A DNA stretch of 10,387 bases. It comes from an uncultured Clostridium sp. (GTDB lineage Bacteria > Bacillota_A > Clostridia > Lachnospirales > Lachnospiraceae). The stretch spans positions 1-10,387 of the forward strand of contig CAMWKN010000021.1 in NCBI GenBank assembly GCA_947174825.1. The letters run 5' to 3'. The translations under genes were made by a program, and so were the position numbers. How positions within the stretch are numbered: position 1 is the stretch's first letter; each line of letters opens with the position of its first letter. Below the pieces are notes generated by a model, which made no database searches, had not been told where the DNA came from, and saw only the letters and a program-made list of their open reading frames with translations. Positions 1-10,141 of this stretch are shown here, piece after piece.

Positions 1-41
1 AAATAAAGCAAGAGAATTTAAGTATCTATCTTGCTTTATTT
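1..41 (-). terminator. Hairpin terminator after the Cys-rich peptide operon
   Basis: Bases 1-13 (AAATAAAGCAAGA) pair perfectly with 29-41, leaving a 15-base loop. The hairpin lies 44 bases past the stop of the last precursor gene, where a transcript of the minus-strand operon would end. The stem is AT-rich and the following T-tract is mostly outside the window, so its strength cannot be judged. It could work in both directions. Confidence 0.55.
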
Positions 42-84
42 TCGTTAACACCTAATTTTTTTAATGCAAGAGTATGCGAAATTT

Positions 85-246
85 CTAGCATATCAAAGTA
101 TAATTATTTTCTTTTTTACTAGTTGTATCACAACCTCTGCATCCCTTACACCCATCGCATCCAGAGCAACTGAAGCAGTAAACGCTTGCTGTACCATCAT
201 CATTTCTGCCCTCAAACGAAAAATCAATTACTTCTGTTGTAAACAT
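85..246 (-). CDS. Cys-rich RiPP precursor peptide 4 (CxG repeat)
   Basis: A 53-residue peptide starting MFTTEVIDF, with an acidic, Cys-free leader (about residues 1-22) and the core CFSCSGCDGCKGCRGC at residues 24-39. The six cysteines (24, 27, 30, 33, 36, 39) fall at every third residue, and a seventh Cys is the last residue. The start is fixed by AGGAGG at 255-260, eight bases before the ATG, and by the MFT opening shared with the three sibling genes upstream. It is the last gene of the operon, 12 bases after its neighbour. By analogy with CXXX-repeat systems the core should be the substrate of the upstream radical SAM enzyme; the actual modification is unknown. Its frame is easily missed because a longer plus-strand shadow frame covers it. 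Confidence 0.85.
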   Translation of the reverse strand: MFTTEVIDFSFEGRNDDGTASVYCFSCSGCDGCKGCRGCDTTSKKENNYTLIC

Positions 247-258
247 ACTTCCATCCTC

Positions 259-408
259 CTACTGTCTACTAGGTGGCGTGTCTACCTTGCTTAGTGAATC
301 ACAGCCGTCACATCCCTTACAGCCAGAACACCCCTTGCAAGTTATACATCCTACATATGGAATATTTGTATTTTCCATATTAATATTCATAATTTCATCC
401 GTAAACAT
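259..408 (-). CDS. Cys-rich RiPP precursor peptide 3 (CxG repeat)
   Basis: A 49-residue peptide opening MFTDEIMNI. The core CITCKGCSGCKGCDGC spans residues 21-36 with six cysteines in exact three-residue spacing, and a Cys-free tail ends in PPSRQ. AGGAGGG at 416-422 supports the ATG. Its stop codon (TAG, 259-261) is the first part of the TAGGAGG that forms the ribosome site of precursor 4. The same arrangement joins precursor 2 to this gene, so the tandem copies look like products of duplication. It lacks the C-terminal Cys seen in precursors 2 and 4. Probable substrate of the radical SAM enzyme at 1233-3365. Confidence 0.85.
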   Translation of the reverse strand: MFTDEIMNINMENTNIPYVGCITCKGCSGCKGCDGCDSLSKVDTPPSRQ

Positions 409-420
409 TGATGATCCCTC

Positions 421-585
421 CTATAAGCATAAATAATTTGCCGTATTCTTTGCTGTATCTCCACAGCCTGCACATCCTTTGCAACCGTCGCAGCCTTTAC
501 ACCAAGAGCAATTAACTCCTTCCATCTTCTCTTTTCCTGATTCGTATATTCCCGAATCCAAATCAAATAATTCTGATGTAAACAT
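421..585 (-). CDS. Cys-rich RiPP precursor peptide 2 (CxG repeat)
   Basis: A 54-residue peptide opening MFTSELFDL, with a charged leader to about residue 25. The core CSWCKGCDGCKGCAGC is at residues 26-41 and a short tail ends LCL. Six core cysteines sit three residues apart, plus an extra Cys at 53. TTAGGAGG lies just before the ATG (about 593-600). It follows a 125-base gap after precursor 1, the longest gap between the precursors. Its TAG stop overlaps the Shine-Dalgarno site of precursor 3. A longer minus-strand frame at 387-593 is a shadow in another phase: it has no sibling-like start and its cysteines are not in register. Confidence 0.85.
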   Translation of the reverse strand: MFTSELFDLDSGIYESGKEKMEGVNCSWCKGCDGCKGCAGCGDTAKNTANYLCL

Positions 586-710
586 AAAGTCACCTCCTAA
601 CTAAAGCTCGTAACATGTCTAGAATCCCTAAATTTCAAGCAAGAAAACTTCTATTTTAAACGCATCAATCAAGAGTTTAAAGTTTGAAATATAAGGAAAC
701 AAGAATGGAT

Positions 711-851
711 CTAGTTTACCTTGTTGCCTTTACAGCCGGTACAACTATCACATCCTTTGCAAGCTGTACAAGTAATACAAAATGCTGCTGGTGCAATCTG
801 ATTCTGATTATCAGTTGCTGAAGTTTTTACAAAGAAATCTTCTGTAAACAT
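711..851 (-). CDS. Cys-rich RiPP precursor peptide 1 (CxG-like repeat)
   Basis: A 46-residue peptide opening MFTEDFFVK. The core CITCTACKGCDSCTGC is at residues 25-40 and is followed by KGNKVN. The six cysteines (25, 28, 31, 34, 37, 40) keep the three-residue period, but Ala and Ser replace Gly in two units, so this is the most divergent copy. The open frame continues upstream to 941. I chose the ATG at 851 because GAGGTGA precedes it (about 857-864) and because MFT plus an acidic residue is the shared start of all four copies. It is the first precursor after the 90-residue accessory gene, separated by a 92-base gap holding a hairpin. Confidence 0.86.
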   Translation of the reverse strand: MFTEDFFVKTSATDNQNQIAPAAFCITCTACKGCDSCTGCKGNKVN

Positions 852-886
852 ACAATTCACCTCTTTTCTTTTAAGTTTTATTAGAA

Positions 887-920
887 ATATTGTATGAGGG
901 AAACAAACCCTATCCAATAT
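887..920 (-). other. Hairpin between accessory gene and first precursor
   Basis: Read on the minus strand, ATATTG/CAATAT (6 bp) and AGGG/CCCT (4 bp) form a two-part stem around TTTGTTT. No clear T-tract follows. It could be a weak attenuator, a processing site or a 3' stabiliser that sets precursor against enzyme levels. The structure is visible; the role is inference. Confidence 0.35.
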
Positions 921-943
921 CTCTTTACATAACAAAATCAAAC

Positions 944-1216
944 CTATAACATTACGGTAATTTCACTGTCACCAAAGTTCATAAATGCACGCTCATCAAA
1001 ATCATAATGATACTTTTGAGAAATTTGATTCCACCATTGTTTCTTTTCGCATTCCATCTTCTCAATTTCTTTCTCTATCTGCGGCAATAACCCTTTTTTG
1101 TCAGGATAATCTACCTCTATTGTCACTTTTAAATCTTTTAATGCGCCTAAGTGATTAGAGATATTTTGTATTTTTAAAGTTTCTTCTTTTTCTATTCTTT
1201 GTCTATATATACTCAT
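944..1216 (-). CDS. CXXX repeat peptide modification system protein-like (90 aa)
   Basis: A 90-residue, charged, Cys-poor protein with no signal or membrane segment. The C-terminal part carries KKQWWNQISQKYHYDF and ends DSEITVML. This matches my memory of the small 'CXXX repeat peptide modification system protein' family, whose members carry a paired-Trp WW...KY segment and end in a short E-I-hydrophobic strand. Members are found beside the radical SAM CXXX maturases, and the neighbour here is exactly such an enzyme. GGAGGG precedes the ATG and the upstream stop is only 16 bases away, so it is co-transcribed. Its biochemical role is unknown to me; it may be a chaperone or leader-binding partner of the maturase (inference). 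Family assignment is from memory, not from a search. Confidence 0.72.
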   Translation of the reverse strand: MSIYRQRIEKEETLKIQNISNHLGALKDLKVTIEVDYPDKKGLLPQIEKEIEKMECEKKQWWNQISQKYHYDFDERAFMNFGDSEITVML

Positions 1217-1232
1217 GATATTATCCCTCCTA

Positions 1233-3365
1233 TCAAACCCTTAACTTTTTATCCTGCAATAAAATAAATGGGTCATCATACGAAATCGGAGCTAAAATAT
1301 TATTACTAAATGGAGTTTTATCATTGATCTCCATTAGTTCTTTTTGCAGTTCATAACTTATGCTTCTTTCGATATGACTTACAATACATTGTTCACGTGA
1401 TGGTATGTTATATTCCAAAGTTTTCTTTTTATTATCAAAAACACATCTTTGACAATGTGTAGCATCACATTCACTGCAAATCGGAGATTTTGAAATTGTC
1501 AATAAATCGCTAAACTCTGTTGTAAGTCGCTCTTCATTTTTAAATTCAAGATATTCATTTCTATTATCATAATAAAAAGCAGGGCACAAATAGAACTTTC
1601 CATTTGGTGCCAATGTAAAGCTTTGTGTTCCAGCATTACAACTCATTATCTCCATTTCTTTAGTCAGCAATATATTCGTCAACAAATTAATTTGTTTAAA
1701 ATGTTTTTCTCTAAAATGTTTAATTATAATTGACTTTATGATTTGAAGTTGTTCTTTGTAAATTTTCTGTTCCTTTTCTGTCAAATTGTAATCTGAAAGA
1801 ACAATATGCACCTTTTTAACAGCTTCAAAATCAAAAAGTTTTTCACATATTAAACCCAATTGAGATATTTGTGCTCTATCCACATGACAAATAACATAAC
1901 TGCATCCTTCGACACAATCAACTTCATCAGTGTTAATAACATCTATACGATCAAAATAGGATTCATTGCAACCGCAGGGAACTATATGTTTTGCTTCAAA
2001 TCCCCTAAGTTTTTCGGAAAACGATTCATCTAATTTACTATTGTCATGTAAAATAACTGGCATTAGAAAATGTTGTCTTGCAAATTCCAATCCTTTACAA
2101 AAATTCTCCAAAGAGATTTTTTCTTCTACTCCACCCTCAGCATTATATCGACAATAAGATACGCTTTTATTGCTCATCATAATATATAAATATCTTTTTC
2201 TATCTTTATTAAAAATATTTCTATTTCTATTTTTTTCATTCCTCAACCTAGCAAAAAAATAATCATTTGCTCGGCATCTTGCTTTGTGCATTTTGCAAAT
2301 ATTTGTTTCCCTACTATAAATTGTATCAGATTTAGCAAAATCAAAATTATTTCCTTGACACCAAGCACATCCCGATGCAACTACACAATTAAGGCATTCT
2401 TCAGAACTTTGTGATTTTAATTCAAGCGCTTCAAAACTTCGTACCAAATTGATATCTACTCCTGAATTTAGATTCCCAATTTTTCTCCCTTCTTTTCTAT
2501 TGTTTAATGTGAAAGGCAAAAAACGAGTGCAAGGGTATAAATCTCCATTATAGTCTACAGCCGCAACATTTTCACCACAATTACACCAGTTTGCATACAT
2601 TCTTTCTTTTCCATTTGGTATTCCTATACGTTCTTCAAAAAAACCTCCACTGAATGATTCATCCAAATTATTATCAATCAAATAATCTGCCAACTGAATT
2701 AACTGATTCATAAATAATTGGTCATCACCCGGTTTCCAAACATCTTCTAAAACCACATTTGCACTGACATCTTTAAATCCCAAACTGTACAAATATACAA
2801 TACTATCTTTTAAATATTTTAAATCATCACTTGCAAAGGTAACTTTCGTTGCAGCATTCGGAAATTGCTTTAAATATAAATCAATGTTTTTTATAACATC
2901 ATCAAATGATCCGGTTCCATCCTTCTTTACCCTCTGCAAATCATGTTTTTCCTTTGTTCCATCTAAAGTTATTCCAACGAAAAGCTGATTGTAATTTTTT
3001 TTAATAAACTTTTGAACTTTTTCTGTGCCATATAATGTACCATTACTAGAAACAGTAATATTATAATTTGTAAACCAATGATGTTTTTCCTCGTAAAGTC
3101 TAAATTTCATATAATCACATATTTTATCCATTAAATCTATCTCTAAAAATGGTTCTCCTCCCATAAAATCTAAATAGAATATAGATTCATCACTCATAGT
3201 ATCAATTACCATGTCAATTGCTTTTTTAGCAACCTCAAAGCTCATTTTTCCTTTATTATTTTTATGTACCTCATAACAATATTTGCAAGCCAAATTACAA
3301 TTTTCCGTTACTACCAACGTCAAAAACCTACGATCTAAAATGGTGTTTTTTAATTCATTCCTCAT
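1233..3365 (-). CDS. Radical SAM/SPASM peptide maturase fused to CXXX repeat peptide maturase
   Basis: A 710-residue two-part protein (numbered from the ATG at 3365). Residues 1 to about 370 form a radical SAM enzyme. CNLACKYC at 23-30 gives the three [4Fe-4S]-binding cysteines (23, 27, 30) that reductively cleave S-adenosylmethionine, and GGEP at 69-72 is the usual motif 2. A SPASM-type Cys-rich region follows (Cys 261, 263, 279, 324, 327, 333, 336, 357, 364) for auxiliary clusters. From KRYLYIMMSNKSVSYCRY (about 390) begins a second part with no CxxxCxxC motif. It ends in TLAPNGKFYLCPAFYY, CSECDATHCQRC (630-641) and EQCIVSHIER, which I recognise as the CXXX repeat peptide maturase family, usually encoded as a separate protein. 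It should install thioether or other Cys-derived links in the four downstream precursors. GTG at 3368 is also possible, but GGAGG lies six bases before the ATG. Confidence 0.85.
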   Translation of the reverse strand: MRNELKNTILDRRFLTLVVTENCNLACKYCYEVHKNNKGKMSFEVAKKAIDMVIDTMSDESIFYLDFMGGEPFLEIDLMDKICDYMKFRLYEEKHHWFTNYNITVSSNGTLYGTEKVQKFIKKNYNQLFVGITLDGTKEKHDLQRVKKDGTGSFDDVIKNIDLYLKQFPNAATKVTFASDDLKYLKDSIVYLYSLGFKDVSANVVLEDVWKPGDDQLFMNQLIQLADYLIDNNLDESFSGGFFEERIGIPNGKERMYANWCNCGENVAAVDYNGDLYPCTRFLPFTLNNRKEGRKIGNLNSGVDINLVRSFEALELKSQSSEECLNCVVASGCAWCQGNNFDFAKSDTIYSRETNICKMHKARCRANDYFFARLRNEKNRNRNIFNKDRKRYLYIMMSNKSVSYCRYNAEGGVEEKISLENFCKGLEFARQHFLMPVILHDNSKLDESFSEKLRGFEAKHIVPCGCNESYFDRIDVINTDEVDCVEGCSYVICHVDRAQISQLGLICEKLFDFEAVKKVHIVLSDYNLTEKEQKIYKEQLQIIKSIIIKHFREKHFKQINLLTNILLTKEMEIMSCNAGTQSFTLAPNGKFYLCPAFYYDNRNEYLEFKNEERLTTEFSDLLTISKSPICSECDATHCQRCVFDNKKKTLEYNIPSREQCIVSHIERSISYELQKELMEINDKTPFSNNILAPISYDDPFILLQDKKLRV

Positions 3366-3447
3366 CACAAACCTCCAATATTGTTTAAATTTAATTATAT
3401 TAATTCATAAATAGTGTGGCCAGCAAAATCCCAACCTAAATTTACAA

Positions 3448-3475
3448 ATTATAAGATGAAAACGCAGTCCATCAA
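3448..3475 (-). promoter_or_regulatory. Sigma-A-type promoter for the peptide operon
   Basis: On the minus strand, TTGATG (3475-3470) and a perfect TATAAT (3453-3448) are separated by 16 bases. This gives a transcript start near 3441 and a leader of about 75 bases before the radical SAM gene. The rest of the 247-base gap 3366-3612 is AT-rich, and I saw nothing else I can name in it. Confidence 0.6.
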
Positions 3476-3612
3476 CCTACCTATAAACTAACATCAATTT
3501 AACCAAGATTACTTTCAAGTCTAATTGCAATATTATTTTACAAGAAAAAAGTCAAACAAACTTCATCTTGTAATTTTTCTGACTTTCCATGTAAGATTTC
3601 CCCATAACAACT

Positions 3613-3815
3613 TTAATAAGATTTTGCACATAATGTACTAAAAAGATTTAATTTGAGTTCATTTAATAAATTTGAGACTAACTTTTCAATTCCGTTTGCC
3701 ATTTTCTCAGGCATATGTAACAAATATTTCTTCTGCTCTCCATTTCTGTCATCTAAAACATTCATAACACGTTCTAAAATAGGTATTTTATTATGACTTG
3801 TATACAGGAGACATT
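3613..3815 (-). pseudogene. C-terminal remnant of an XRE-type regulator
   Basis: In the minus-strand frame, LLYTSHNKIPILERVMNVLD and the following KKYLLHMPEKMANGIEKL match, position for position, the tail of the intact XRE regulator at 9741-10073 (LMYENLNQIPITERILNILN and QEYLLHMLEEMSFGLDKL). The similarity stops at about 3815, and the frame continues into unrelated sequence including the agrD terminator hairpin. The whole helix-turn-helix half is therefore missing. An extra 16 or so residues follow the point where the intact protein ends. No start codon with a ribosome site serves the fragment. It looks like a gene cut when the agr locus, or the peptide operon beside it, arrived. Confidence 0.7.
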
Positions 3816-3844
3816 GGAAATGAATTGACCAAACCTTTTTTCCA

Positions 3845-3892
3845 AAAATACTGCCATATATGTAATTTCCCTCACATATATGGCAGTATTTT
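3845..3892 (-). terminator. Strong terminator downstream of agrD
   Basis: A perfect 19-bp inverted repeat (3845-3863 with 3874-3892, containing ATACTGCCATATATGT) closes a 10-base loop. On the minus strand the stem runs straight into TTTTT. It starts 20 bases past the agrD stop, so it ends the agrD message before the XRE remnant and the peptide operon. The T-run on the other strand is shorter, but some bidirectional action is possible. Confidence 0.8.
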
Positions 3893-3911
3893 CTACCGTA
3901 TGTTGGCTTTT

Positions 3912-4058
3912 TTATCGGGAAAACTTTTTCATTCCTGCCGGCTGCTTGGGCTGATGAAGGCAATACATACATCTGCTGTCCGCTGCTGCTTTTACAGAAT
4001 TAAGTGCCACTTTTCCCAAAATTGTTGCTACAATATTTTTCTTTTTGCTGCCTACCAT
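3912..4058 (-). CDS. agrD: AgrD-like cyclic lactone autoinducer prepeptide
   Basis: A 48-residue peptide with a basic start (MVGSKKKN), an amphipathic stretch (about 9-28), then CMYCL (30-34) and the tail HQPKQPAGM. The HQPxxP tail directly after a five-residue Cys-led segment is the signature of clostridial AgrD proteins; from memory, Clostridium perfringens AgrD has CLWFT followed by HQPEEP. By that analogy the pheromone ring would be CMYCL, with a thiolactone from Cys30 to the Leu34 carboxyl made by AgrB. A second Cys (33) inside the ring is unusual. GGAGGTG lies just before the ATG at 4058; the frame extends to 4193 without a better start. Normal agr order puts agrD after agrB. Here it is divergent from the agr operon, 236 bases away. 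Confidence 0.82.
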   Translation of the reverse strand: MVGSKKKNIVATILGKVALNSVKAAADSRCMYCLHQPKQPAGMKKFSR

Positions 4059-4089
4059 ATAACACACCTCCAATATCATTTTTAATGAC

Positions 4090-4095
4090 AGTATA
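4090..4095 (-). promoter_or_regulatory. Candidate -10 box of the agrD promoter
   Basis: TATACT on the minus strand sits about 18 bases before the agrD ribosome site, with no good -35 at 16-18 bases. A sound -10 without a -35 is what AgrA-activated promoters show in Staphylococcus. I could not recognise a clear pair of LytTR repeats, so AgrA control is inference. Confidence 0.35.
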
Positions 4096-4213
4096 CCTTG
4101 TTTTACAGGCTTTTCCTTTTCAATGTTGAAATTCCGATACAGCATGTAATTTTTCCCTGTGATCATTCCCATACCGATATTTAATTTATGCATCTGTTGT
4201 TTTACCGTTATAT

Positions 4214-4259
4214 GAGTATCTTGTTTACTCGCTTAGATTGTTTGTTTATTCTATATACT
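4214..4259 (+). promoter_or_regulatory. Candidate promoter and operator of the xre-agrACB operon
   Basis: TATACT at 4254-4259 would start transcription near 4266, about 29 bases before the XRE start; only weak -35 matches (CTTAGA, 4232-4237) are present. GAGTA-7-TACTC (4214-4230) is a short inverted repeat just upstream and could be an operator for the XRE protein. Together with the agrD box this makes 4059-4294 a divergent regulatory region with no gene of its own. Confidence 0.35.
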
Positions 4260-4294
4260 TGTGTGAAAATATTACCAGAAAAGGAGTTGTACAT

Positions 4295-4693
4295 ATGGCA
4301 AATAATCGTATTCGTGAACTAAGAAAGAATTTGAGCCTGTCTCAAGAAGCTCTTGCCGAGAAAATTGGAACTACTCAACAAGCGGTAAGCAGAATGGAAA
4401 ACAACGCTTATGATATTCCTTCTGATATACTCATAGAAATATCAAAACAATTTAATGTTACTACTGACTACATACTTGGGATTTCTGATGTGAAGCGTGA
4501 TTATAACGGACAGTACCGTATGAATCAGGAAATGGATAGATGCTATGATATTGTCCTCCGCTATCAGAACCTGTCCGAAATCAACCAAAAGACACTCCGC
4601 TGCATACTTGAGCGCTTAGAGCAGGCGCAAAAGGAAAGCGAGGAAGCATCTGCAAAGGAAGTGGATAAAAATGCTGAGAATAGCAATATGTGA
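4295..4693 (+). CDS. XRE-family regulator in the agr operon
   Basis: A 132-residue cytoplasmic DNA-binding protein. Residues 4-64 are a classic Cro/CI helix-turn-helix: RIRELRKNLSLSQEALAEKI, then TTQQAVSRMENN as the recognition helix and PSDILIEISKQFNVTTDYIL as the closing helices. The C-terminal half is helical and charged (LRCILERLEQAQKESEEA), probably for dimerisation. I chose the ATG at 4295 because AAGGAG lies eight bases before it and the helix-turn-helix starts at once; the upstream in-frame ATG at 4238 has no ribosome site and overlaps the promoter. Its last 23 bases overlap agrA, so the two are translationally coupled. An XRE gene heading an agr operon is not the textbook layout. It may repress this operon or agrD (inference). 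Confidence 0.8.
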   Translation: MANNRIRELRKNLSLSQEALAEKIGTTQQAVSRMENNAYDIPSDILIEISKQFNVTTDYILGISDVKRDYNGQYRMNQEMDRCYDIVLRYQNLSEINQKTLRCILERLEQAQKESEEASAKEVDKNAENSNM

Positions 4694-5414
4694 TGATGAT
4701 TCAAAATTTACCGGGGAAATCGAAACTTTGGTATTTCAAGAAAGCCGGAAGTTAGGCATCCGTGTGGAAACCGAAGTATTCTCCGACGGCAAACCCCTCC
4801 TGAAAAGCATTCAGGACGGCGAGCATTATCAACTTATATTTATTGACATTGAAATGGAGCAGGTAGACGGAATAACGGCTGCACGGTGCATCCGTGAGAT
4901 AGACCGGACGGTACTGCTGATTTATGTATCGGGCTATGATAAATATTTAAAGGAGCTGTTTGAAGTGGAGCCATTCCGCTTTCTCTCAAAACCTTTAAAC
5001 CATTCCCAGTTTGCCCGCTATTTTAAGGAATCCTGTAAACGCATCAATGAGACGGAAGTATTCTATCAGTTTACATTTAACAAGGAAATTCAGAAAGTTC
5101 CTGTAAAAGACATCGTTTATTTTGAAAGCAATAACAGAATCGTTTATATCCACCTTAAAGACGGCTCTGATGAACATTTTTATGGAAAACTCAATAATGT
5201 GGAAAAGGAACTGGCAGCAAGCAGGCAGTATTTCCTGCGTATACACCAGTCCTTTTTAGTGAATTACGACTATGTTAAGAAAATGAACTTTTTCAATATT
5301 ACCATCAGTTTCATGGGAAAAGAAATAGAATTGAAAATCAGCGAGGATCGGCAAAAGGAAGTGCGCCAGCAGCTTTGTAAGATTGCAGGCGGAAAGGCGG
5401 TCATAGAAGAATGA
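4671..5414 (+). CDS. agrA: AgrA-like LytTR response regulator
   Basis: A 247-residue protein with an N-terminal receiver domain (about 1-120). The acidic pocket is DDD (8-10), Asp59 in IFIDIEM is the phosphate acceptor, Ser87 is in YVSGYD and Lys107 is in FLSKPL. A LytTR DNA-binding domain (about 135-235) follows, with FNKEIQKVPVKDIVYFES and YFLRIHQSFLVNYDYVKKM typical of AgrA/ComE-type activators. It should be phosphorylated by the kinase encoded next and bind paired direct repeats at agr promoters. The gene overlaps xre by 23 bases and agrC by four (ATGA). The symbol is given on domain order and neighbours; other LytTR regulators look similar. Confidence 0.85.
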   Translation: MLRIAICDDDSKFTGEIETLVFQESRKLGIRVETEVFSDGKPLLKSIQDGEHYQLIFIDIEMEQVDGITAARCIREIDRTVLLIYVSGYDKYLKELFEVEPFRFLSKPLNHSQFARYFKESCKRINETEVFYQFTFNKEIQKVPVKDIVYFESNNRIVYIHLKDGSDEHFYGKLNNVEKELAASRQYFLRIHQSFLVNYDYVKKMNFFNITISFMGKEIELKISEDRQKEVRQQLCKIAGGKAVIEE

Positions 5415-7913: not shown

Positions 7914-9071
7914 CTACAATCCTTCTTCCACGCTCCGCACCCATTCCCTTACTTTTTCAACAAGTTCCTGTTTCCTTTCAAAATGCAGGTAATGCCCACC
8001 ATCCAGCCGCAGCATTTCACTCTTATCCGTTTCTGTAATTACTTCCCGGTGCAACGTCTCCCATGTTTCCAGCAGCTCACAGTTATCCCCCGAAACGAAT
8101 TGCAATACTGGGACTGTTTCAGGAAATTTCATATCCCTTACAGACTCCAGACTATCCTCCATATGCCCTATTTCATTCATAATATCTTTGCTGTATGCAT
8201 AATCCATAGACAAAATGCGGAATACTTCCAACTCCCTACCTGAATATGAATAAGAAGTATCTGCATAGATTGCGTTTTCAGGATGCCCTATGGAACATAA
8301 CCGGGTAATCCCTAACACATTTGTTGCCTTCTGGAAATACGCTGATAGCTTATTCAATGCTACCATGCTGATCGGGAGCGGCTCTTCATCAGACTGTTTG
8401 GGAACAGACGGCTCAATCCCTATAAAGCCCTTTACTTCCTGCGGATAGACATTCGCCCAGTACAGGGAATACAACCCGGAGAGCGAATGCGGCATTAAAT
8501 AATACTGATTGCAGCCTAACTTTTGGGTACACTCATGCAGTTCTTCCACGACAACGCTGATTTCCCGTTCCGTTCCAACCCTGTCAGATAGCCCATATCC
8601 AAACGGTTCTATGGTAATAACCCTGAAATCTTCTGACAGTTCTTCCGCCAGCGGAAGAAACTCCAGGACAGGCGAAGGCGACCCCCAGCCGGGCAGCAAT
8701 ATGATTGTTGTTTCGTTATCCTCTCCCTTTATATCTACCACCATATTATGCCCATTCACTTCAATAACCGTTCCATATGCAGCTTCAATTTTGGACTGTT
8801 CTGCCTTCTTGCAGATAAAATTCCAAATCATCAATACTGCAATAGCTCCCAATAAAATCAAACCTGCCCATTTCATAATTTTGAATATCTTTTTTCTCAT
8901 GTTCCTTTCCTCCTTCTCTTTTACACTATGTCTTGGCGTACATTCAATCTCTGAAAATACAATCTTCTTGATTCTGTCATTGTTGGTTGCATTTCTGACT
9001 TCCCCGTTCCCTTCAATCAACTCTGAAGCATTATCAAGCATATCACTAATCCTAATCTGCATTGCTTCCAT
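7914..9071 (-). CDS. Membrane alpha/beta hydrolase with anti-sigma-like N-terminus
   Basis: A 385-residue open frame. Residues 1-57 are soluble and charged and look like the cytoplasmic start of a transmembrane anti-sigma factor (MLDNASELIE, DRIKKIVFSEIE). One hydrophobic segment (about 66-86) follows, then an alpha/beta hydrolase that would lie outside the cell. Its oxyanion loop is LPGWGS (126-131), the nucleophile Ser196 is in PHSLSG, the acid is likely Asp329 in VSGDN and the base His360 in DGGHYLHF. PHSLSG departs from the usual GHSxGG. The frame starts 20 bases inside the sigma gene, as anti-sigma genes often do; Met4 (9062) is an equal alternative. An excellent ribosome site precedes an in-frame ATG at 8900 (Met58), so the hydrolase may be made alone as 328 residues starting MRKKIFKIMKW. 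The substrate is unknown. Confidence 0.75.
   Translation of the reverse strand: MEAMQIRISDMLDNASELIEGNGEVRNATNNDRIKKIVFSEIECTPRHSVKEKEERNMRKKIFKIMKWAGLILLGAIAVLMIWNFICKKAEQSKIEAAYGTVIEVNGHNMVVDIKGEDNETTIILLPGWGSPSPVLEFLPLAEELSEDFRVITIEPFGYGLSDRVGTEREISVVVEELHECTQKLGCNQYYLMPHSLSGLYSLYWANVYPQEVKGFIGIEPSVPKQSDEEPLPISMVALNKLSAYFQKATNVLGITRLCSIGHPENAIYADTSYSYSGRELEVFRILSMDYAYSKDIMNEIGHMEDSLESVRDMKFPETVPVLQFVSGDNCELLETWETLHREVITETDKSEMLRLDGGHYLHFERKQELVEKVREWVRSVEEGL
8909..8915 (-). promoter_or_regulatory. Internal ribosome site for the hydrolase (ATG at 8900)
   Basis: AAGGAGG on the minus strand ends eight bases before the in-frame ATG at 8900, the best-spaced ribosome site in the right half of the window. 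In the longer frame these bases encode Lys-Glu-Glu. It argues that an independent 328-residue hydrolase is produced, either instead of or as well as the longer form. Confidence 0.65.
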
Positions 9072-9612
9072 ATCCCTCTTTGATCAGAAATTTTTTTAGC
9101 ACCTCTCTTCCACGCCGCAGTCTGGTTTTCACTGTCTGAGGATTCATCTGAAGCTCCTGCGCAATCTCATTCACTTTTTTGTACTGGTAGTAATACGCAA
9201 CAAAAATCTTCCAGTCTAACGGCTTCAACTGTTCTAAAATTTTTGCAATAATTCTCTGCTGTTCTCTTTGGACAATTAGCTGTTCCACGCTGTTATCAAT
9301 TACCAGAATATCATCCATCAACTGTAGATTCTGTACTTTGGCAGTTCTCAACCAGTCTTTTGCTTTATTCCTTGCAATGACTGCTATGTATGCCTTTATG
9401 CTGCTATATTCTTCATAATTGATCCTTTCAACCGTATTCCACAATGAAATAAATGTGTCTGCAACCACCTCCTCTACATCTTCTTTTGTTCCCTTTGAGC
9501 TTAATAGGTTTCTGACAATAGCAGTAATATAAGCGCCATACAAATCAATTATTTCTTCAAATGCCTTTTCATCCCTGTTCCGTAATCTCTTTAGTATGCT
9601 CTTTTCGTCCAT
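9052..9612 (-). CDS. ECF-type RNA polymerase sigma factor
   Basis: A 186-residue sigma-70-family protein. Region 2 spans about 16-90, with EEIIDLYGAYITAIV and EDVEEVVADTFISLWN, then IKAYIAVIARNKAKDWLR for -10 recognition. Region 4 spans about 130-180, with LKPLDWKIFVAYYYQYKK and the helix-turn-helix VNEIAQELQMNPQTVKTRLR for -35 recognition. Region 3 is absent, as in ECF factors. The frame extends to a GTG at 9675, but an ECF-type promoter lies at 9648-9674, so the ATG at 9612 (MDEKSILKRL, preceded by AGGA and GGAGGA) is the likely start. The 3' end overlaps the next gene, whose N-terminus resembles an anti-sigma factor. Together they look like a membrane-signal circuit. Confidence 0.85.
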   Translation of the reverse strand: MDEKSILKRLRNRDEKAFEEIIDLYGAYITAIVRNLLSSKGTKEDVEEVVADTFISLWNTVERINYEEYSSIKAYIAVIARNKAKDWLRTAKVQNLQLMDDILVIDNSVEQLIVQREQQRIIAKILEQLKPLDWKIFVAYYYQYKKVNEIAQELQMNPQTVKTRLRRGREVLKKFLIKEGYGSNAD

Positions 9613-9647
9613 TCCTCCAAATCCTATCTGCTCAAATTTTTCATCAA

Positions 9648-9674
9648 TACGGTGCTTGTAAGAATTTGGTTTCA
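9648..9674 (-). promoter_or_regulatory. ECF-type autoregulatory promoter
   Basis: On the minus strand, TGAAAC (9674-9669) and CGTA (9651-9648) are separated by 17 bases. This is close to the Bacillus SigW/SigM-type consensus, TGAAAC with 16-17 bases then CGT. The start point would be near 9641, leaving about 29 bases before the sigma ATG. It probably lets the sigma factor switch on its own operon. Confidence 0.62.
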
Positions 9675-9684
9675 CTTTTTAGGC

Positions 9685-9740: not shown

Positions 9741-10073
9741 CTAAAAGAGCTTGTCCAAACCAAATGACATTTCTTCAAGCATATGTAATAAATATTCCTG
9801 TTGCTTTTCACTTTTACTGTTTAAGATATTCAGAATACGTTCTGTTATGGGAATTTGATTTAGATTTTCATACATGAGATATGATAGGGGAACATCCAAT
9901 GCATCTGCTATTCTCATAAAATTTTCTAACGACATTGTTCTGCTCCCATGCTCGATCCGCTTTATAGAATCAACTGAAAGCTCTGCTTTCTCTGCTAGTT
10001 CAAATTGAGTTAAATTTTGCTTTTTCCGGTATAATTTCACGTTATCGGCAATAGTATATTTTATATCCTTCAT
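9741..10073 (-). CDS. XRE-family transcriptional regulator
   Basis: A 110-residue protein. The helix-turn-helix (about residues 7-65) includes NVKLYRKKQNLTQFELAEKA, with SVDSIKRIEHGSRTMSLENF around the recognition helix and ADALDVPLSYLM closing it. The C-terminal 35 residues (TERILNILNSKSEKQQEYLL onward) are a short helical tail, and the same tail survives in the remnant at 3613-3815. I preferred ATG at 10073 because GGAG lies nine bases before it; ATG at 10088 adds five residues (MENQK) but has no ribosome site. A TTGCTG-17-TATACG promoter and a 12-bp palindrome lie upstream, suggesting self-repression. Its targets are unknown. Confidence 0.83.
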   Translation of the reverse strand: MKDIKYTIADNVKLYRKKQNLTQFELAEKAELSVDSIKRIEHGSRTMSLENFMRIADALDVPLSYLMYENLNQIPITERILNILNSKSEKQQEYLLHMLEEMSFGLDKLF

Positions 10074-10141
10074 TTTCTGATTCTCCATTCTTTATATTTA
10101 TTTTTGAAATGAAGAATCTGCAGGCGGTCCTCTTTTCGACT

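What the first reader, a model, noticed from the sequence alone, without database searches (positions are those of the whole stretch)
85..851. Four tandem precursors with six cysteines at exactly every third residue
Seen directly: 46, 54, 49 and 53-residue peptides share an MFT + acidic/hydrophobic opening and a 16-residue core whose Cys fall at i, i+3 ... i+15, mostly as C-x-G. The neighbouring enzymes match CXXX-repeat systems, whose name implies a four-residue period. A strict CXX period with Gly before most Cys would make a distinct precursor class, perhaps with a regular thioether ladder or a metal-binding rod. The leaders diverge while the Cys grid is invariant, which is expected if an enzyme reads the grid.
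Basis: partly seen in the sequence, partly recalled or inferred. Interest (0 to 1): 0.85.

Follow-up and report, generated by a model that had tools for sequence, protein, structure and literature searches.

The report
Three-residue cysteine-grid peptides beside quorum sensing
A gut bacterium carries four small peptides with a cysteine at exactly every third residue next to an enzyme whose relatives act on peptides with a cysteine at every fourth residue, and the set sits beside a cell-to-cell signalling system, pointing to an uncharacterised, density-controlled modified peptide.

Summary
Four tandem minus-strand ORFs (85-851; 53, 49, 54, 46 aa) each have six Cys spaced exactly i+3, and each has a ribosome-binding site. 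Upstream lie a TIGR04116-like small protein and a fused radical SAM/SPASM maturase that passes the NCBIfam cut-offs for the CXXX-repeat system (TIGR04115, TIGR04119). The peptides match none of the CXXX precursor models. Among 82 maturase loci with recognised precursors, only the window and an oral Lachnospiraceae locus (L080) are purely i+3; the other 80 hold 176 i+3 and 1,778 i+4 steps. Window and L080 maturases share a supported clade, and database searches gave further intact i+3 precursors, so this is a conserved sub-class. In L080 and two mixed-grid Lachnospiraceae loci it forms one same-strand array with the maturase. Gly is the commonest residue at Cys+2 in both i+3 and i+4 steps, suggesting that the unit read is C-x-G with zero or one spacer. 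Verdict: a new variant of the CXXX-repeat radical SAM peptide system under probable agr control. The chemistry (thioether ladder favoured) is inferred, not shown.

The parts
711..851 (-). Precursor 1, 46 aa, MFT start, core CITCTACKGCDSCTGC
   Evidence: relative P0125, 85% identical
421..585 (-). Precursor 2, 54 aa, core CSWCKGCDGCKGCAGC
   Evidence: relative P0123
259..408 (-). Precursor 3, 49 aa, core CITCKGCSGCKGCDGC
   Evidence: relative P0126
85..246 (-). Precursor 4, 53 aa, core CFSCSGCDGCKGCRGC; the contig ends 84 nt after it
   Evidence: near-identical P0122, named as a Lachnospiraceae MAG protein K1W41_25025
944..1216 (-). Accessory protein, TIGR04116-like (38.9 bits, cut-off 50), predicted beta-alpha-alpha-beta-beta fold
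1233..3368 (-). Fused maturase: residues about 1-385 radical SAM/SPASM (TIGR04115, 469 bits, cut-off 350), residues about 386-711 TIGR04119 half (209.6 bits, cut-off 150), a remote homologue of the first half without CX3CX2C. GTG at 3368 or ATG at 3365
3912..4058 (-). AgrD autoinducer precursor, 48 aa, upstream of the maturase on its strand
   Evidence: TIGR04223 33.6-35.6 bits, cut-off 19; RBS-like site
4238..4693 (+). HTH regulator (best NCBIfam hit RstR-like, 42.7 bits, below its cut-off of 80); likely true start inside, at the ATG of MANNR
4671..5414 (+). LytTR response regulator (AgrA-like)
   Evidence: PF04397, PF00072
5411..6721 (+). GHKL histidine kinase (AgrC-like)
   Evidence: PF14501
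6759..7328 (+). AgrB membrane protease
   Evidence: PF04647 133.6 bits, cut-off 23

Best explanation
This is a ribosomal-peptide maturation locus of the CXXX-repeat radical SAM kind whose precursors use a contracted three-residue grid, coupled to an agr quorum sensor. Proposed working: AgrB matures AgrD into a cyclic signal; at high density the histidine kinase and LytTR regulator switch on the maturase, the accessory protein and the precursors; the maturase, probably with the accessory protein, reads the C-x-G units one after another and joins each Cys sulphur to a nearby backbone or side-chain carbon, giving a ladder of small thioether rings; an ABC exporter, seen downstream in the three related agr loci but possibly beyond the contig edge here, secretes the product. 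Shown: gene content, the grid, its conservation, kinship to CXXX maturases, agr adjacency in four loci. Inferred: modification itself, thioether chemistry, the acceptor (Gly at Cys+2 guessed), agr control, export and role.
Against: No experiment on a TIGR04115 enzyme was found in the searches, so the chemistry of the whole family is unproven here. LytTR-site scan (15 shuffles): the window has 2 site pairs at 17 of 18 or better against a shuffle mean of 0.2, but both lie inside genes; one 16-of-18 pair at 3501 lies upstream of the maturase, but the 16-or-better count (8 against 6.3) is at shuffle level; L080, L303 and L304 show no clear excess. In the window agr is split over two strands, unlike L080. 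No AgrB was found in the held sequence of the other 85 of 89 loci, so agr is not needed for the family. The Gly preference could be structural. No leader protease was identified.
Confidence: 0.6

Rival explanations
1. Metal-binding rod: the six thiols stay free, or mostly free, and the secreted or cytosolic peptide chelates soft metal ions, as a metallothionein or metallophore would; the radical SAM enzyme makes a minor trim or none.
For: Six regularly spaced Cys with Gly and few bulky residues; a SPASM-family partner does not by itself prove cross-links.
Against: A radical SAM maturase and accessory protein are encoded beside the precursors, and an accessory-protein relative was found in 88 of 92 sources searched, two pairs of them duplicates. 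agr and ABC-transporter neighbours in three related loci fit a secreted bioactive peptide better. No metal-resistance family was hit by the window ORFs that were scanned.
Confidence: 0.2
2. Azole peptide (heterocycloanthracin/sonorensin type): the CXX repeat is turned into thiazoles by a YcaO cyclodehydratase encoded elsewhere.
For: Known Cys-Xaa-Xaa repeat bacteriocins exist and are encoded far from their enzymes (PMC2674419, abstract), and their [Cxx] part is rich in glycines (PMC7136475, passages). The L080 precursor gives weak hits to NF033482 thiocillin (21.9 bits, cut-off 25) and TIGR03601 (15.8 bits, cut-off 35).
Against: 0 of 3 genomes with this architecture (L080, L023, L064; completeness not stated) hold a YcaO match; the same search rang in 5 of 14 control genomes. 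The window precursors themselves hit neither model.
Confidence: 0.04
3. The Cys peptides are themselves a second signal: a modified pheromone sensed by the neighbouring kinase, with AgrD as a partner or relic.
For: SCIFF-derived ranthipeptides were reported to take part in quorum sensing in clostridia (Chen et al. 2020, seen only as a table entry, a citation and reference entries in PMC8326336 and PMC8748961). Four sequence-different precursors in one locus.
Against: Each of the four agr loci keeps its own AgrD-like peptide (window and L080 over the cut-off; L303 below it; L304 by eye). ABC-transporter genes follow the precursors, with an FtsX-type permease in L303, which looks like export and self-protection.
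Confidence: 0.1
4. Chance neighbourhood: the agr genes merely lie near the maturase and have nothing to do with it.
For: Split arrangement in the window; no convincing shared regulator site; most CXXX loci show no AgrB.
Against: Same gene order in L080, L303 and L304 with the maturase directly after AgrB; per-genome chance of AgrB within 6 kb about 0.3-0.7%, though these loci were picked from 89.
Confidence: 0.1

Closest known systems
CXXX-repeat radical SAM peptide system (NCBIfam TIGR04115, TIGR04116, TIGR04119; precursors TIGR04114, TIGR04117, TIGR04118)
   Same: Maturase passes the TIGR04115 and TIGR04119 cut-offs; accessory protein is a remote TIGR04116 relative; several precursors in one locus, as in many of these loci; C-x-G enriched
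   Different: Grid strictly i+3 rather than mainly i+4; no hit to the precursor models; acidic MFT leader; agr module adjacent
Ranthipeptides: SCIFF/CteB and freyrasin/PapB
   Same: Radical SAM core plus SPASM auxiliary-cluster region; six Cys in about 45-54 residues; 5wgg nearest solved fold
   Different: No Asp/Glu acceptor at fixed spacing; maturase carries a second radical SAM/SPASM-like half without CX3CX2C; below the PapB and SCIFF curated cut-offs
Heterocycloanthracin (TIGR03601, [Cxx] repeats) and lactazolicin ([Cxxx] repeats)
   Same: Cys-Xaa-Xaa repeats, Gly-rich, in a small precursor (PMC2674419, abstract; PMC7136475, passages); the same Cxx/Cxxx pair of spacings exists there
   Different: Azole (YcaO) chemistry; no YcaO match in 3 genomes with the related architecture
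agr quorum sensing (AgrBDCA)
   Same: AgrD, AgrB, GHKL kinase and LytTR regulator all present
   Different: Sits beside a peptide-maturation locus and, in three related loci, in the same array

Membership tests
CXXX-repeat radical SAM system | Maturase above the TIGR04115 cut-off (350 bits) and TIGR04119 cut-off (150) | tested here: met
   469.4 and 209.6 bits
CXXX-repeat radical SAM system | Accessory protein above the TIGR04116 cut-off (50 bits) | tested here: not met
   38.9 bits, E 7.1e-10. Its counterparts in L303 and L304 pass (73.0 and 57.9 bits); L080's does not (20.3). A profile seeded with the window protein itself found one relative in 88 of 92 sources
CXXX-repeat radical SAM system | Precursor with Cys at every fourth residue / match to TIGR04114, TIGR04117 or TIGR04118 | tested here: not met
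   All grid steps i+3; none of these models hit at E up to 10, only unrelated chance hits; 4 of 10 precursors from other loci pass a cut-off
Ranthipeptide (PapB or SCIFF) | Maturase above the PapB (340 bits) or SCIFF (425) cut-off | tested here: not met
   197.3 and 132.7 bits
Ranthipeptide | Cys to non-alpha carbon thioether in the product | not testable with these tools
   needs mass spectrometry and NMR
Sactipeptide | Cys to alpha-carbon thioether in the product | not testable with these tools
   Gly at Cys+2 would allow only an alpha link to that Gly; inference
Heterocycloanthracin / azole peptide | YcaO cyclodehydratase in the genome | tested here: inconclusive
   0 of 3 related genomes, control rings in 5 of 14; the window's own genome is not held
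agr quorum sensing | AgrB, AgrD, GHKL kinase and LytTR regulator together | tested here: met
   PF04647 133.6 bits, TIGR04223 33.6 bits, PF14501, PF04397
Metallothionein | Metal binding by free thiols | not testable with these tools
   no Pfam metallothionein hit at E up to 10, weak evidence for such short peptides

The most novel reading that the evidence does not exclude
The maturase counts C-x-G units rather than a period, so the strict i+3 grid becomes an unbroken ladder of i to i+2 Cys-to-glycine alpha-thioethers, a rod-like thioether peptide type that I have not seen described, produced on command of a built-in agr quorum sensor.
Probability: 0.18. Interest if true: 0.8.

Novelty: new variant of a known kind. 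Interest (0 to 1): 0.52.

Why it matters
No characterised member of the CXXX-repeat radical SAM family turned up in the paper searches. A natural series of loci with i+4, mixed and pure i+3 grids, all beside homologous maturases, gives a ready test of what such an enzyme measures along a peptide. The agr module offers a likely inducer, the synthetic autoinducer, for switching on a silent locus in gut and oral Lachnospiraceae.

Tried and rejected
Literature: all 10 searches of the open-access library were used; subscription journals are mostly not held. No paper for 'CXXX repeat' with 'radical SAM', TIGR04115, 'Cys-Xaa-Xaa' with radical SAM and precursor peptide, or six CXXX-family names. 'ranthipeptide' with 'CXXX' gave 5 papers, 4 listed. 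Passages of those four use CXXX for CxxxD motifs, for the CxxxCxxC cluster motif, or for azole lactazolicins, not for this family. 'radical SAM' with agrB, RiPP and Lachnospiraceae gave one protease review (passages), which describes AgrB but, in the passages seen, not this coupling. agrD with radical SAM gave seven papers, seen only as a listing apart from that review. 'ranthipeptide', 'quorum sensing' and 'agr' gave 39 papers, 20 listed, of which I saw passages of two.

LytTR-site scan: nothing convincing. Rfam: no match in the window. Promoter and terminator scans of 1-4700: at shuffle level. Fold search of the accessory protein: no match at E up to 0.001, best 2js5 at E 1.7, probability 0.85. 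Its model topology is not a winged helix, so I do not call it an RRE. Fold searches of the maturase were filled by its first half; the second half was compared only by profile.

Rows left out of the 89-locus count: L044 (duplicate of L042); L295, L302, L303, L304, L317 and L161/L326 (re-fetches of loci already counted); L289-L294 and L305-L311 (short re-fetches of the same places); L299 and L322-L325 (first-half-only maturases); viral contigs. 7 of 89 had no precursor passing the filter; of these L014, L047, L062, L067 and L070 have short four-Cys grids (steps 344 or 444), none purely i+3. The filter can admit antisense frames (L041 and L060 look affected), which only adds i+3 steps to the other loci. 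Many loci end at contig edges, so agr counts are lower bounds.

Full report
OBSERVATION. The window is a 10,387-base contig with no whole genome held. The minus strand carries four short ORFs in tandem, 711-851, 421-585, 259-408 and 85-246. Each has six Cys spaced exactly i+3, a ribosome-binding site and varied Cys and Gly codons. Two of the four (421-585 and 85-246) also carry a seventh Cys near the C-terminus. The run is improbable for the composition (2.7e-6 to 1.3e-5 each); the four are paralogues, so these are not independent.

NEIGHBOURS. Upstream on the same strand lie a 90-aa protein (944-1216; TIGR04116 at 38.9 bits, cut-off 50) and a 711-aa protein (1233-3368) that passes TIGR04115 (469.4 bits, cut-off 350) and TIGR04119 (209.6, cut-off 150). 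The four peptides hit no NCBIfam model of a CXXX precursor. Of ten precursors taken from other maturase loci, 4 pass a cut-off of TIGR04114, TIGR04117 or TIGR04118; each of the ten has at least a weak hit (E up to 1) to one of them.

HOW UNUSUAL IS THE GRID. I fetched 80 genome loci (best 80 of a capped scan) and further ones from whole-genome searches. After removing duplicates and first-half-only enzymes, 89 loci including the window were counted and 82 had precursors passing the filter. Only the window (20 of 20 steps) and L080, Lachnospiraceae oral taxon 107 (5 of 5), are purely i+3. The other 80 have 176 i+3 and 1,778 i+4 steps; the longest i+3 run elsewhere is three steps. L018, L023, L053, L064, L298 and others mix the spacings, so there is a continuum. 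In a tree of 76 first halves (38 from loci including the window, 38 database proteins) window and L080 share a 14-row clade (support 100/99), within an 18-row clade (100/99) apart from the other 58. Window branches first and L080 is nested, so pure i+3 is most simply the ancestral state of the 14; precursors of the rows between are unknown.

CONSERVATION. Protein searches (sequences) gave relatives of the window peptides (P0122, P0123, P0125, P0126) and of the L080 peptide (P0124, P0135, P0136, and P0137, whose run stops after five Cys). In all, 12 distinct sequences have six Cys at i+3, P0122 differing from precursor 4 by one residue. In four pairs Cys changed 0 of 24, Cys+1 6 of 20, Cys+2 1 of 20, leader 20 of 91, tail 13 of 40. 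Gly is the commonest residue at Cys+2 for both spacings: 76% of 25 (window+L080), 60% of 47 i+3 and 34% of 252 i+4 (other non-Bacteroidota-type loci), 37% of 123 i+3 and 36% of 1,524 i+4 (Bacteroidota-type). I infer that the unit is C-x-G plus zero or one residue.

QUORUM SENSING. The window holds AgrD (3912-4058, minus strand, between the maturase and the plus-strand genes; TIGR04223 33.6 bits, cut-off 19), and on the plus strand a LytTR regulator, GHKL kinase and AgrB. AgrB was found in 4 of 89 loci: window, L080, L023, L064. In L080, L303 (=L023) and L304 (=L064) the order on one strand is regulator, kinase, AgrD, AgrB, maturase, accessory protein, precursors, then ABC transporter genes; an FtsX permease was recognised only in L303, and the L080 630-aa permease hit no Pfam family. 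AgrD evidence: L080 50.2 bits; L303 14.9 bits, below the cut-off; L304 by eye only. These genomes show 1, 2 and 2 AgrB genes, so adjacency by chance is about 0.3-0.7% per genome. All four agr loci are among the 11 of 82 with at least 25% i+3 steps (hypergeometric 1.9e-4, not corrected for kinship). L023 and L064 lie outside the window clade, so the link arose or moved more than once, or was lost often. L299 has a distant kinase and regulator but no AgrB hit. The LytTR-site scan does not support direct control. The window contig ends 84 nt after precursor 4, so an exporter there could be cut off.

MECHANISM. Kinship to thioether-forming maturases favours thioether formation. PapB accepts Cys-Xn-Asp for n = 0-6 (PMC9413430, abstract), so spacing drift is plausible. 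With no fixed Asp/Glu, and with Cys+2 conserved while Cys+1 varies, I favour Gly at Cys+2 as acceptor, which would make an alpha-thioether; this is inference. YcaO azole chemistry is unlikely: 0 of 3 related genomes, with working controls. Azole peptides show the same pair of repeats, [Cxx] in heterocycloanthracins and [Cxxx] in lactazolicins (PMC7136475, passages).

DISTRIBUTION. Patchy: 6 of 397 family-level genomes at E up to 1e-100, one of them first-half-only; 1 of 6, 2 of 13 and 1 of 77 in three genera; 4 of 393 and 8 of 392 (five of them first-half-only) at order level. These tallies include the centre genomes, which were known carriers. One conjugative plasmid of Anaerococcus prevotii, of 72,556 plasmid records, at E up to 1e-60.

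VERDICT. A real, conserved short-spacing variant of the CXXX-repeat radical SAM peptide system, coupled by position to agr. New variant of a known kind; chemistry open.

Noticed in passing
window 3613-3972 and 3845-3892: By eye, a frame resembling the C-terminus of the HTH regulator at 9741-10088 lies between maturase and AgrD (no NCBIfam hit), with a perfect 19-nt inverted repeat, 10 nt apart: looks like a decayed regulator copy.
   Followed up: partly
window 7914-9675: ECF-type sigma factor (9052-9675) overlapping an alpha/beta hydrolase (7914-9071), minus strand; no relative of the hydrolase was found in the loci searched.
   Followed up: no
L004-L077, mostly Bacteroidota: CXXX precursors with leaders like RREFFKKAAKGALPILG, resembling twin-arginine signals (weak TIGR02811 hit in L005 and TIGR01409 hit in the Planctomycete L072), mostly placed upstream of split maturase genes.
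   Followed up: partly
L322, L323, L325, L299; viral contigs L082-L160: Short maturases matching only the first half; L322, L323 and L325 have 217-227-aa neighbours ending in long i+4-rich Cys grids. 79 of the 80 viral-contig hits listed also match little beyond the first half.
   Followed up: no
P0127, P0138, P0140: 82-93 aa peptides with a different leader and i+3 C-x-G runs, perhaps another unrelated CXX precursor kind.
   Followed up: no
P0128, P0129, P0132, P0139: Proteins with signal-peptide-like starts and CKGC-type i+3 grids, unlike the window leaders.
   Followed up: no
L204 1-349: Viral-contig frame with 24 Cys steps, 23 of them i+3.
   Followed up: no
NC_013164.1 273-2342: CXXX-repeat maturase on a plasmid of Anaerococcus prevotii that PLSDB predicts to be conjugative.
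   Followed up: no
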